DNA from: Fistulifera solaris
Taxonomy: Eukaryota > Bacillariophyta > Bacillariophyceae > Naviculales > Stauroneidaceae
Length of the DNA stretch: 64,000 nt
Assembly: GCA_030295235.1 (NCBI GenBank)
Contig: AP026131.1
Location: 558,001-622,000, forward strand
Reading direction: 5' to 3'
Shown here: positions 21,344 to 59,155 of the stretch, piece after piece
Layout: every line of letters starts with the position of its first letter
Position numbering within the stretch: the first letter of the stretch is position 1
Made by a program: the position numbers and the translations under genes
Notes under the pieces: generated by a model
Seen by the model: the letters and a program-made list of their open reading frames with translations, nothing else
What the model was told of the DNA's origin: nothing
Databases searched by the model: none

Positions 21344-21956
21344 TTTTCACGTCTCCTGAAAATCTGGGAGAGTGGTATTTTGACGTGTCCCGAAGATCTG
21401 GGCGTTTGGTAATTTGACGTCTCCAGAAAATCAGCGTGTGCGGTATTTTGACGTCTACCGAAAATCTGGGTGAATGGTATTTTGACGTGTCCCGAAAATC
21501 TGGGTGGGTGGTATTTTGACGTGTCCCGAAAATCTGGGTTAGCGGTATTTTGACGTCTCCCGAAAATCTGGGCTTGCGGTATTTTGACATCTCCCGAAAA
21601 TCTGGGCGTGTGGTATTTTAACGTGTCCCGAAAATCTCTCCGAGACGCGGTAATTATTTTTTCACGTGTCCTGAAAATCTGGGAGAGTGGTATTTTGAGG
21701 TGTCCCGAAGATCTGGGAGTGCGGTGTTTTGACGTCTCCAGAAAATCAGCGTGAGCGGTATTTTGACGTGTCCCGAAAATCTGGGAGTGTGGTAATTTGA
21801 CGTCTCCCGAAAATCTGGGGGTGCGGTATTTTGACATATCCCGAAAATCTGGGAGTGCGGTATTTTGACATATCCCGAAAATCTGGGGGTGGTGTAATTT
21901 GACGTCTCCCGAAAATCTGGGAGTGAGGTTTTTCACGTGTCCCGAAAATCTGGGAG
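21344..21956. repeat. 34-bp minisatellite, about 18 units, with a 315-bp higher-order duplication
   Basis: Unit start points recur every 34 bp (for example 21484 and 21518). The core reads TGACGTGTCCCGAAAATCTG followed by a variable GnGnG and GGTATTT. A larger period is also visible: CGAAAATCTCTCCGAGACGC occurs at 21314 and again at 21629, 315 bp apart, with the same sequence of unit variants after each. Ten units keep TGACGT exactly and two contain CACGTG. The array fills most of the space between the divergent WD40 and BTB genes. Confidence 0.92.
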
Positions 21957-55510: not shown

Positions 55511-58500
55511 TTATGCGGGTCGAATGAAAACCATTTTTCTGTATTGCTGATCTTGCTTTGCACCAATAAGCCGTGATACCTCGCTGGCAAGCATGAATGA
55601 GACATCTTGGCCGTCAATAGACACAAGAATGTCGCCAATGTTCACCTGGTCAAATAGAACACTGCTTTCTCGGATCGACTTGACCACCGGCGAACCATCT
55701 CCATTTGTTTCCAAAACCAAACCAAGAAATCCGCTTGGCGCCATGATTTCCCATTTTTCACAGATGGCATACTGTGCATTCAATGTGACATCGTCGGCAT
55801 CGGCGATTAACACAGGGGAGGTACATCGCGAAGATGTTTCATATGAATGAGATACTATGGAAGCTTCCGGTCGCTCAAGATACGCTTCTCGAAAGTCATA
55901 ATCAATGCTACGCGGTTCTAAGGTAGCAAAATCTGCCAAAGATCCCGAAACTCCTGGGGGTATCGGGTCACCTAGGCTGCTCATATCTTGAACGGTCTGT
56001 AATCCAATTTCAGACATGTAGTCATGAGCTTCATAAGCAGGCTTGGGGTAAGAGCCGGTATGTTCTTCTTGGTTCATCTGCTCCGCTAACTGAGCTTGTT
56101 TGCGGCGATTTCTCGATACAGAAAATACGAAAGTTCCGGCTAGCAGCGCAATAGCAGCAATTCCAACCAAAATGCCCACAATTACGCTTTCTGAACTTTT
56201 CGTTCCTCCGTCTGCCAAGGCAAGCTCTGTAGGGAGAATAATTTCGACGGATGTAACTTGATCCAATTCTGGACATGAAGTGCTTCGTAAGAAACGGACA
56301 AAAGCGTCCTTTTCATCTTGGGAATCAAAAGGACCACCGATGTATCTTCGCATGTCATGTACTGTCAGGAAAGACCTAATTTCAATCAGAACATCGAACG
56401 TATACGATATTGCTAACTTCTCGATGTTCAGCTCCTTCGTAGTATTTTGAATAAAGACGTCAAGAGTTTCGATCGTCTGTACCACTTCTTCCACTTCATT
56501 CCTCACGCTGTTTGCCACAAACTCTTCCACTGGCCGGACGCAGAGTGCCCTGTACGGTACTTCTTCCTCTTGTAACCGTCGAGAATCAAACTTTGCCAGT
56601 ACGACAATCCTTTCCGACAACAGGCTCATTTTTTCGTATAAAAAAGACGGGGTGGGAATAGCGGACGGCGCAGTGCTGGAAGTGGGCTGGAAGGATACAG
56701 ATGGCGACCCAGAAGGAGAAACACTAGGGACCAACGACGGCTGGGGTGACGGACCAAATGTAGGCGGTAGTGATGAGGAGACGAAGGGTTTGTCTTGTGT
56801 CACTGGTTGAGCAGCTGGACGGCGTGTAGGAGTATTGTTCGCCACTGGTGCCGTAGGGCGACTTACAGGTGGTGCAACAGGCTTGCTAACAGGAGCCCTG
56901 GTACGCACCGCGGTAGGGCGTGGCGGGGGATCTCTTGTTGGCGCAGGCACCGGAGGATCTCTTGTAGGCATAGACACCGGAGGATCTCTTGTAGGCATAG
57001 ACACCGGAGGGTCTCTTGTAGGCATAGACACCGGAGGGTCTCTTGTAGGCGCAGGCACCGGAGGATCTCTTGTGGGCGTAGGCACCGGAGGTTCTCTTGT
57101 GGGCAAAGCCACTGGAGACGAATCACCGTCTAGAAGAGAAAGAAACAACACGTGAGACATATCCTTCAGTGGCGAACAATACTCCTACACGCCGTCCAGC
57201 TACTCAACCAGTGACACAAGACAAACAGCCTTACCATTCGTAATGGACCGAGAAGGCGAGCGTGTTGGCGCAACTACTGGAGTCTGTGTGTCCGGAACTG
57301 GTGTTTCTGGAATACTCGTGGTCGCTGTAGGCGATGCTGTCGGATTATCAACAGGTTGTGCAACGGGAGTTGGAGTCGGCCGTGCAACTGGTGCTTTCGT
57401 AGGCGAAGGATTCACAAAACCATCATCATCTACATCTGGTGCAACATAGTCATCTTCATCTGTTGGCATGTCGTCGTCATCATCATCATCAACTTCATCG
57501 TCTCCATTTGTGGGGACTTCGCCTTCTGAAGTTGGATTATCGACTGGCGGAACAGACGGAACGGCGTCCGGCAATAGCTGCACAGGGGCACTGGTTTTCT
57601 CATTTGCCGTCTCACCTGATGGTGTTTCATTTGTATTAACTGCCGTTGGTTTACTGACAGGGGCTGCAACGGGGCTCGCGACCGGATACTGCAAAGTTGG
57701 TTGCGCTATCTCACTCGTAGGCGTTTCGTTTGTTGTCTCTGGCGTTAAATCACTTGTAGGAGATGCAACGGGGCGCGCAGTTCGGATATTAGTGGGAACG
57801 GGCAACGCAAAAGGAGCCGTCGGGGTCTCATATGAAGGCGTTTCGTGTGCAGTAGTTTCGAATGTTGCTCTTGGAGATGGTGCGCCGGTCGACACAATGT
57901 CCCAAATTGGTGCCGGTGTGGGGTATTGCTGTGGTGGTGTCACTGGAGAAAGAGTAGGTGGAGAGATAGGGACAAAAGTAGGCAAATGAGAAGGTGTTTG
58001 AGAAGGATTGAAAGTTGGATTTGTGGAGGGAATTTGCATTGGTTTCCAAAGAGATAGACGAATATTGAGTTCCGACAAGAGAGGGCGGTACGCTTTTCTC
58101 ACCGGGAATAGTCAATGTTGGTGTAACCAATGGTGCGCTGGACGATTGAATTGGTGGTGATATCGAGGGCGCCTGCGTTGCGGTAGGCACCGGTGCAAGA
58201 GTAAACACATCAATCGGTGGCGATTCCGATGGCGCCTCCGTTGCAGTACGCACCGGCGGAGGAGTCAACACAGTAGAACGCGAGGGGGACGGTTTGTTGG
58301 TTGCTGTTATCACCGGTGCAGCAGCCATGGCAATGGAAGGTTCAGGCGTTATATCATCCATTGCCGTGACCACGGGTGCGTTTTTTTTTTTTGTTGTAAG
58401 GATATCAGACACAGGAGAAGGATATGGTGCCGGAGAGATCGAAACAACTAGTGATTTTGCAATTGAAGTAGTCTTACCAGTACCAGATCGAGACCAGCTT

Positions 58501-59155
58501 AATGTCGGCGCCACAGATAAAGAGGGAGCCGTCGATGGATAAAGGGACACCGATGGTGCCGAGGATACGGTGGGAATCGTAGACGGATTCGCAGAAACGG
58601 ATGGTGCAGACGAGACTGATGGGCTGCTTGATAGCGTAGATTGCGAAAAAGAAACCTTACTTCGGATGGCTTGTTGACAGCAATTTTTGTGGGGAATGAA
58701 GGCAAAGTAGGCTTTACATCGGACAGTTCAGTCGACGGTGGAGGAACCGGGGGCGAAGGGGCAGTATTCTGCTTGGGGCTTTTGAGATGCCGCGAAAAAA
58801 CGAGTGCGTTCCCTTCGTCTCCTCCGGTCAAAATGGTGCGCGCACCTATTACTGTTGTAATCAAAAGCAACGTCAAAACAGGGAGGAAAGGCGACATGCG
58901 CTTTGAATTCCGTTTGAGATGGAAATCAGCTAAGTTGCATTCGTCACCGTCGCCTTTCATGCGGAATTCGACAGAAAGATGATCAATTGAAACATCATCA
59001 TCATGTCTCTGTACCAAGTTTACTGTGTTCGCCTTCGTTTCCGCCTCCATGGTCATCTGAACATCAAAACTGTCAGCCACATCCATCAGTTCTTGCAGTC
59101 TCCAATTCCTACCGCAGCACTTCTTATATTTTGGCGTCGTTTGCGAATCCTTCAT
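55511..59155 (-). CDS. Mucin-like Pro/Thr/Ser-rich membrane protein with C-terminal PDZ domain
   Basis: About 1179 residues with one intron (57130-57234) and two single-base breaks (58646-58650, one missing; 58043-58045, one extra). Order: a cytosolic N-terminus; a hydrophobic anchor (PFLPVLTLLLITTVIGA, near 95); a stalk of about 600 residues of P-T-x-P type (TPTPVAQPVDNPTASP) with an acidic patch (DDEVDDDDDDD); a 27-bp coding minisatellite (PTRDPPVSM); a folded region (about 680-830); a membrane helix (VIVGILVGIAAIALLAGTFVF, near 885); and a PDZ-like domain at the end (GFLGLVLE, IGDILVSIDGQDV). A heavily O-glycosylated stalk on the cell surface with an inner PDZ domain is inferred. Such a protein could link wall or adhesive mucilage to the inside. 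Function unproven. Confidence 0.75.
56788..57226. repeat. 60-bp inverted repeat, one arm in exon and one in intron
   Basis: Arm 1 is 56788-56847 and arm 2 is 57167-57226. They are reverse complements with a single mismatch in 60 bp (GAGCAGC versus GAGTAGC), 319 bp apart. Arm 1 is coding (the part VANNTPTRRPAAQPVTQDK), while arm 2 fills over half of the 105-nt intron and begins 8 nt after its donor. Confidence 0.93.
56930..57120 (-). repeat. 27-bp coding minisatellite, about 7 units
   Basis: Units of 27 bp encode PTRDPPVSM or PTRDPPVPA, in frame. Neighbouring units are nearly identical at the DNA level, so the array is recent and probably length-variable. Confidence 0.9.
57130..57234 (-). other. 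Intron of the mucin-PDZ gene, largely an inverted exon copy
   Basis: Donor G/GTAAGG at 57234, acceptor TTCTCTTCTAG ending at 57130, 105 nt. Splicing joins SITN to DGDSSPVALP in phase 1. Positions 57167-57226 are the inverted copy of 56788-56847. Confidence 0.85.

What the first reader, a model, noticed from the sequence alone, without database searches (positions are those of the whole stretch)
56788..57234. An intron made mostly of an inverted copy of a neighbouring exon
Seen: 57167-57226 is the reverse complement of 56788-56847 with 59 of 60 bases matching. The first lies inside a 105-nt GT-AG intron, 8 nt from the donor, and the second is coding sequence of the same gene. Inference: the intron was created or enlarged by a local inverted duplication. 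In the pre-mRNA the arms could form a 60-bp hairpin that buries the 5' splice site and loops out the PTRDPPV minisatellite (about 320 nt). That would be a built-in switch for splicing, or a source of double-stranded RNA. Near-identity means the event is recent.
Basis: partly seen in the sequence, partly recalled or inferred. Interest (0 to 1): 0.8.

Follow-up and report, generated by a model that had tools for sequence, protein, structure and literature searches.

The report
Inverted exon copy inside old intron
In one of the two parental gene copies of an oil-rich hybrid diatom, a small copying accident pasted a backwards 60-letter piece of a gene's exon into an intron that was already there; it looks real and fairly recent, but it is a known kind of mutation with no shown function.

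Summary
In detail: 57167-57226 is the reverse complement of 56788-56847 at 59 of 60 bases, inside a 105-nt GT-AG intron of a minus-strand gene. The genome matches Fistulifera solaris, an allodiploid diatom; contig C9 (the window) has a colinear homoeologous contig, C10. C10 has the same intron with the same donor and acceptor, but 69 nt long and without the inverted arm. So the event did not create the intron; it enlarged it by 36 nt. The arm shows the C9 state at all six sites where the exon differs from C10, so it was copied from the C9 exon after the lineages parted. No other copies were found, unlike two MITE-like hairpins nearby. Best reading: a short-range template-switch (templated-insertion) mutation. 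The predicted 60-bp hairpin is strong, but the 5' splice site lies outside the stem and is predicted only slightly less open than in C10; effects on the other splice signals are mixed. A splicing brake or self-silencing RNA is possible but unshown; no RNA data were available.

The parts
56788..56847 (-). Arm 1: exon sequence of the gene; the template of the copy
   Evidence: Shared with homoeolog C10 (54 of 60 identical; L007:4606-4665), so ancestral
57167..57226 (-). Arm 2: inverted copy of arm 1 inside the intron, C9 only
   Evidence: 59/60 reverse-complementary; absent from the C10 intron
57130..57234 (-). 105-nt GT-AG intron (donor GTAAGG at 57234, acceptor CTAG at 57130); orthologous intron in C10 is 69 nt
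   Evidence: Donor, acceptor and T-rich tract conserved in C10 with intron-like composition and divergence
57202..57202 (.). The only mismatch between the arms; C10 agrees with arm 1, so the change is in arm 2
57200..57202 (-). In-frame TAG if the C9 intron were retained; a second TAG follows at 57185-57187. The C10 intron is 3n long and stop-free
56924..57117 (-). 27-nt minisatellite encoding the PTRDPPV-type repeat, in the predicted hairpin loop; 7.2 units in C9, 54 nt (two units) shorter in C10
55511..59155 (-). Host gene region: a hydrophobic stretch near the N-terminus and another before the C-terminal tail (by eye), long P/T/S-rich middle, weak PDZ-like tail
   Evidence: ORFs; Pfam PDZ E 0.003, 18.3 bits, below the 23.2 cut-off; C9 carries two 1-bp indels against C10 and C10 one against C9

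Best explanation
A single local DNA-copying error. During replication or break repair, the polymerase working in the intron of the C9 copy switched to the exon sequence about 320 nt away on the opposite strand, copied about 60 nt of it, and switched back. The result is an inverted templated insertion that took the place of about 25 nt of old intron and made it 36 nt longer (69 to 105 nt, taking C10 as the earlier state). The intron was there before, and its donor, T-rich tract and acceptor were kept, so it is most likely still spliced and the change is close to neutral. Shown: the geometry, the presence of the intron without the arm in C10, the direction of copying, no other copy found in the genome. 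Inferred: the polymerase mechanism, that one event did it, continued splicing, neutrality.
For: Arms 59/60. C10 intron at the aligned place, 69 nt, same GT-AG, no arm. Arm 1 is in both homoeologs, arm 2 in C9 only; arm 2 shares the C9 state at 6 of 6 sites where arm 1 differs from C10. The 114-base intron query matches nothing but itself and the two arm-1 copies at E up to 10 (that search skips simple repeats and very common words), whereas two other local hairpins proved to belong to multi-copy, MITE-like families. Twelve nearby comparatively supported introns, chosen by me, differ by 0-9 nt between C9 and C10, so the 36-nt change is an outlier. The arms differ at 1 of 60 sites against 462 of 2138 (21.6%) fourfold sites between homoeologs. 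Template-switch events of this form are described: inverted copies, 65% lengthening the sequence, enriched in introns (PMC7954356, passages).
Against: Only one comparison copy (C10) exists here, so loss of the arm from C10 is made unlikely only by arm 2's match to C9 states, not by an outgroup. No clear junction microhomology: a 4-nt word on one side, seen in 1705 of 20000 random flank pairs; 2 nt on the other. At 60 nt it is long compared with the median of 12 nt (maximum 128) in apes, and its template is 319 nt away. Splicing is not shown by RNA; in C10 the frame runs open through the intron.
Confidence: 0.8

Rival explanations
1. Functional hairpin (an addition to the origin above, not an alternative to it): pairing of the intron arm with the exon arm in the C9 pre-mRNA slows splicing of this intron, giving a C9-specific retained-intron isoform with a premature stop, that is, a homoeolog-specific splicing brake.
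For: Predicted MFE -221.3 kcal/mol against a mean of -147.9 for 100 shuffles (z -11.7), with the long stem; the two arms alone pair at all 60 positions, -123.1 kcal/mol. The C10 counterpart folds at -94.6, z -2.3. With arm 1 present the T-rich tract (0.50) and the AG (0.09) are predicted less open than in C10 (0.76 and 0.19-0.20), and the U1 site slightly less (0.27-0.28 against 0.31-0.32). Retention gives TAG in C9 but stays open in C10. Intron retention is reported as prominent in the diatom Phaeodactylum (PMC5859163, passages).
Against: The U1 site is outside the stem; the GT (0.41-0.44 against 0.20-0.24) and the branch-like CTCAC (0.56 against 0.04) are predicted more open in C9 than in C10. 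Arm 1 is transcribed about 320 nt after arm 2, so splicing may be finished first (inference). Selection cannot be tested on one recent event.
Confidence: 0.12
2. dsRNA/antisense source (likewise an addition): the hairpin, or the excised intron acting as a 60-nt antisense, feeds a Dicer/Argonaute pathway against this mRNA and its homoeolog.
For: The genome holds RNase III domains in tandem (C7:135104-135910 and others) and Piwi-domain matches at 3 places. Antisense and inverted-repeat transgenes silence genes in P. tricornutum (PMC4247016 and PMC3145265, passages).
Against: No small-RNA data here. The cis hairpin exists only in unspliced RNA. The same P. tricornutum paper reports no canonical pre-miRNA-like hairpins.
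Confidence: 0.05
3. The segment is not an intron: in C10 it is coding (a stop-free frame of 1182 codons runs through it), and the insert broke the C9 reading frame, making C9 a decaying copy.
For: C10 segment is 69 nt (3n) without stop; of 8 differences in the 37-nt acceptor side, 5 fall on codon position 3, 3 on position 1, 0 on position 2. C9 has two 1-bp indels further upstream in the gene. A hydrophobicity scan did not set the would-be peptide apart: the highest 13-residue window of the region lies elsewhere.
Against: The 23 residues it would encode hold no P or T in a region with 34% P/T; 0 of 610 other 23-residue windows there have fewer than 3. T content 0.38, like nearby introns (0.35) and unlike flanking exons (0.19). 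GTAAGG and the pyrimidine-rich tract before AG are conserved.
Confidence: 0.08
4. Assembly or sequencing artefact.
For: Isolated 1-bp indels in coding frames in both homoeologs may be consensus errors.
Against: A fold-back chimera would mirror the sequence onward from the junction; here both flanks are colinear with C10 and 319 bases lie between the arms. The arms carry a private difference.
Confidence: 0.04

Closest known systems
Short-range template switch mutation (four-point model; PMC7954356 passages, PMC8794818 abstract and outline)
   Same: Reverse-complement copy of a nearby stretch inserted in one step, template kept in place, able to make an RNA hairpin; such events are enriched in introns in apes
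   Different: Longer (60 nt) than the ape median of 12 nt, within the maximum of 128; template 319 nt away; seen in a diatom through homoeologs
MMBIR-linked templated insertion (PMC8421209, passages)
   Same: Inserted inverted copy of a nearby template
   Different: That software looked for templates within 100 bp; clear flanking microhomology is not found here
Inverted-duplication origin of miRNA genes (PMC3237417, abstract and outline)
   Same: A gene segment and its inverted copy near each other
   Different: Here one arm is the living exon and the other sits in an intron of the same gene; no small RNA shown
Symmetrical stwintrons and derived introns, introner-like elements (PMC8469720, passages)
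   Same: Introns with long inverted repeats and double-stranded potential
   Different: Those repeats lie within the intron and the introns multiply; here the intron is shared by both homoeologs, no further copy was found, and it pairs with an exon

Membership tests
Short-range template switch mutation | Inserted stretch is the reverse complement of a nearby stretch on the same chromosome | tested here: met
   59 of 60, 319 nt between the arms
Short-range template switch mutation | Pre-event state lacks the inserted stretch; template unchanged | tested here: met
   C10 intron 69 nt without arm, arm 1 present; one comparison only
Short-range template switch mutation | Length within the reported range | tested here: met
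   60 nt; reported median 12, maximum 128
MMBIR-type templated insertion | Microhomology at the switch points | tested here: inconclusive
   4-nt word upstream, 2 nt downstream; 4 nt or more occurs in 1705 of 20000 random pairs
Spliceosomal intron | GT-AG ends conserved in the homoeolog, intron-like composition and divergence | tested here: met
   against: 3n and stop-free in C10
Spliceosomal intron | Removed from RNA | not testable with these tools
   No RNA reads
Introner / MITE insertion | Multi-copy element | tested here: not met
   Intron query: only itself and the two arm-1 copies (3 rows); the same kind of search with two other hairpins gave 81 and 82 match rows, inverted self-matches included
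Hairpin RNA / proto-miRNA locus | Long fold-back in one transcript | tested here: met
   Predicted fold only
Hairpin RNA / proto-miRNA locus | Small RNAs from the arms | not testable with these tools
   No small-RNA data

The most novel reading that the evidence does not exclude
A newborn cis-acting RNA hairpin, made by one template switch, that regulates one parental copy of a gene and not the other: the C9 pre-mRNA folds its intron onto its own exon, giving a stop-containing retained form or siRNAs, so that homoeolog expression becomes unequal through an intron mutation.
Probability: 0.08. Interest if true: 0.7.

Novelty: new member of a known kind. Interest (0 to 1): 0.32.

Why it matters
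Homoeologous chromosomes in one cell give a before-and-after pair for a mutation that is usually reconstructed between species. The case suggests how one event can put a 60-bp RNA stem into a gene, and it can be tested with ordinary data: homoeolog-resolved splicing and small-RNA reads would show whether such newborn stems do anything. As it stands it is a clear example of a known mutation class in an intron.

Tried and rejected
Intron created by the duplication: rejected, C10 has the intron. Transposon, MITE or introner: rejected, no further copy found while two other local hairpins belong to multi-copy, MITE-like families. Buried 5' splice site: little support from partition-function folding, with mixed results for the other splice signals. 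Junction microhomology as proof of mechanism: too weak. Hydrophobicity as a test of the coding alternative: did not discriminate. Circular RNA by flanking inverted repeats: considered and dropped, because arm 1 is in the exon and not in a downstream intron (inference).

Search for other local inverted repeats: in 212,000 bases of C9, 86 pairs of 22 nt or more were found and the 60 longest printed; 58 of these 60 lie in one palindrome array at C9:520855-522015, one is the focal pair and one the MITE-like pair at 451144. In 47,759 bases of C9 and 45,720 of C10 at a lower length limit of 15 nt, 2 and 5 pairs were found; besides the focal pair the longest is the MITE-like 29/29 pair in C10. A rate per genome was not estimated: the window was picked because of this feature. 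One search printed 39 candidate-intron rows, several per donor; I kept one row for each of 12 donors by judgement and dropped the rest. The fourfold count used every stop-free frame of at least 300 codons on either strand, so it may hold some false frames.

Full report
What is there. Window 56788-56847 and 57167-57226 are reverse complements at 59 of 60 bases with 319 nt between them. Read on the minus strand, the second lies in a GT-AG interval of 105 nt (57234 to 57130), starting after its first 8 nt, and the first lies downstream in the same gene's coding sequence. Between them are the end of the intron, the acceptor and a 27-nt minisatellite (56924-57117). Chance is excluded.

Where it comes from. 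The window is contig C9, 558001-622000, of a 51.7-Mb genome in 61 contigs. Two CRISPR target 23-mers published for Fistulifera solaris (PMC13276009, passages) each match this genome exactly twice, on contigs C38 and C39 and on C7 and C8, with no match for the reversed pattern. That fits F. solaris, called allodiploid in that paper, with 42 pairs of homoeologous chromosomes (PMC5935921, passages). C10 is the homoeolog of C9 here: eleven colinear blocks at 82-89% identity over about 48 kb. The species name rests on these matches, not on a label.

The homoeolog answers the main question. C10 has the same intron at the aligned place with the same GTAAGG donor and an AG acceptor, but it is 69 nt long and has no inverted arm. 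The donor-side 7 nt are identical and the acceptor-side 37 nt align without gaps (29 of 37 identical); between them C10 has 25 nt and C9 has 61 nt, which are the 60-nt arm and one more base. The intron therefore predates the event and was enlarged by it. Arm 1 is shared by both copies (54 of 60 identical). Arm 2 carries the C9 state at all six sites where C9 arm 1 and C10 differ, so it was copied from C9 after divergence; the one arm-arm mismatch (57202) is private to arm 2.

Is it an intron? No RNA is at hand. For: conserved ends; T content 0.38 in the C10 segment against 0.35 in twelve nearby comparatively supported introns and 0.19 in flanking exons; the 23 residues it would encode hold no proline or threonine, while 0 of 610 other windows of that length in the P/T-rich region hold fewer than three; 69 nt sits among neighbours of 59-96 nt (C9 lengths). 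Against: in C10 the segment is a multiple of three and stop-free, so one stop-free frame of 1182 codons runs through it; the 8 differences on the acceptor side avoid codon position 2; and a hydrophobicity scan did not set the would-be peptide apart. I put the intron reading at about nine in ten. If the intron is retained, C9 meets TAG at 57200-57202 and again at 57185-57187, while C10 stays open. The first TAG is made by the arm's private mutation, but the second is in the copied sequence anyway.

Age. The arms differ at 1 of 60 sites. Homoeologs differ at 462 of 2138 fourfold sites (21.6%; Jukes-Cantor 0.255). One change in 60 is about 7% of that distance; with the usual Poisson limits for a count of one (recalled, not from a call) the upper bound is a little over a third. 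Arm 1 is coding and partly constrained, and gene conversion between arms could make the event look younger.

Mechanism. A search of the genome with the intron (114 bases) finds only itself and the two arm-1 copies (that search skips simple repeats and very common words). As controls, the two next-longest local hairpins outside the palindrome array, C10:603723-603914 and C9:451144-451222, belong to repeat families with more than twenty matching places each. The insert is thus unlikely to be a mobile element. An inverted copy of a nearby template, with the template intact and some recipient bases lost, is the description of a short-range template switch (PMC7954356, passages; PMC8794818, abstract and outline) or an MMBIR-type templated insertion (PMC8421209, passages). 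Junction microhomology does not decide between them. The length is at the long end of what the ape study reports, and the template is further away than the 100 bp that the MMBIR software searched.

Consequence. The pre-mRNA is predicted to form the long stem (MFE -221.3, 100 shuffles -147.9 +/- 6.3; the two arms alone pair at all 60 positions, the mismatch being a G-U pair); the C10 counterpart gives -94.6, z -2.3, with 2 of 100 shuffles as low. The U1 site stays outside the stem: mean unpaired probability 0.27-0.28 with arm 1 included, 0.32-0.38 without, 0.31-0.36 in C10. For the other signals the full C9 stretch against the full C10 stretch gives: GT 0.41-0.44 against 0.20-0.24 and branch-like CTCAC 0.56 against 0.04 (more open in C9); T-rich tract 0.50 against 0.76 and AG 0.09 against 0.19-0.20 (less open in C9). 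So the prediction is mixed and does not speak clearly for a block. These are equilibrium folds and ignore transcription kinetics. RNA-interference domains exist in the genome, and antisense or inverted-repeat transgenes silence genes in P. tricornutum (PMC4247016, PMC3145265, passages; the original paper was not opened), so a dsRNA effect is possible, but nothing here shows it.

Host gene. By eye it has a hydrophobic stretch near the N-terminus, a long P/T/S-rich region, another hydrophobic stretch and a PDZ-like tail below Pfam's cut-off (E 0.003, 18.3 against 23.2 bits). A search with its C-terminal 401 residues gave 24 match rows, 17 of them on C15 or C16. C9 has a 1-bp deletion at 58647 and a 1-bp insertion at 58047 against C10, and C10 has a 1-bp deletion at L007:3620 against C9. 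Whether these are true frameshifts or consensus errors cannot be told here.

Print check. Searches for template switching with diatoms (3 papers listed) and for Fistulifera solaris with intron and inverted (8 of 12 listed) showed no title or abstract start describing this locus; only listings were seen.

Noticed in passing
C10:603723-603914 (L029:3224-3415): 192-nt element with 29/29 terminal inverted repeats, in a stretch unaligned to C9; 81 match rows genome-wide (inverted self-matches included), best other copies 98% identical: a MITE-like family.
   Followed up: partly
C9:451144-451222 (L013:1144-1222): About 80-nt hairpin element (24/24 arms, 31-nt loop) with matches at about 88-98% on many contigs: a second MITE-like family.
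   Followed up: partly
C9:520855-522015 (outside the window): Array of 23-25 nt palindromes of the type CTGGTCCAGAAATTCTGGACCAG, often about 52 bases apart.
   Followed up: no
window 58381-58392: Run of T in coding sequence, 9 nt longer in C9 than C10, adding three lysine codons on the minus strand.
   Followed up: no
window 58647, 58047; L007:3620: 1-bp indels between homoeologs in otherwise conserved coding frames; pseudogene signs or consensus errors.
   Followed up: partly
window 21344-21956: 34-nt tandem repeat, 17.8 copies.
   Followed up: no
G000 C7:135104-135910, C8:100748-101632, C19:328666-329542, C20:296783-297658: Pairs of neighbouring RNase III domain matches on what look like homoeologous contigs, Dicer-like in layout.
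   Followed up: no
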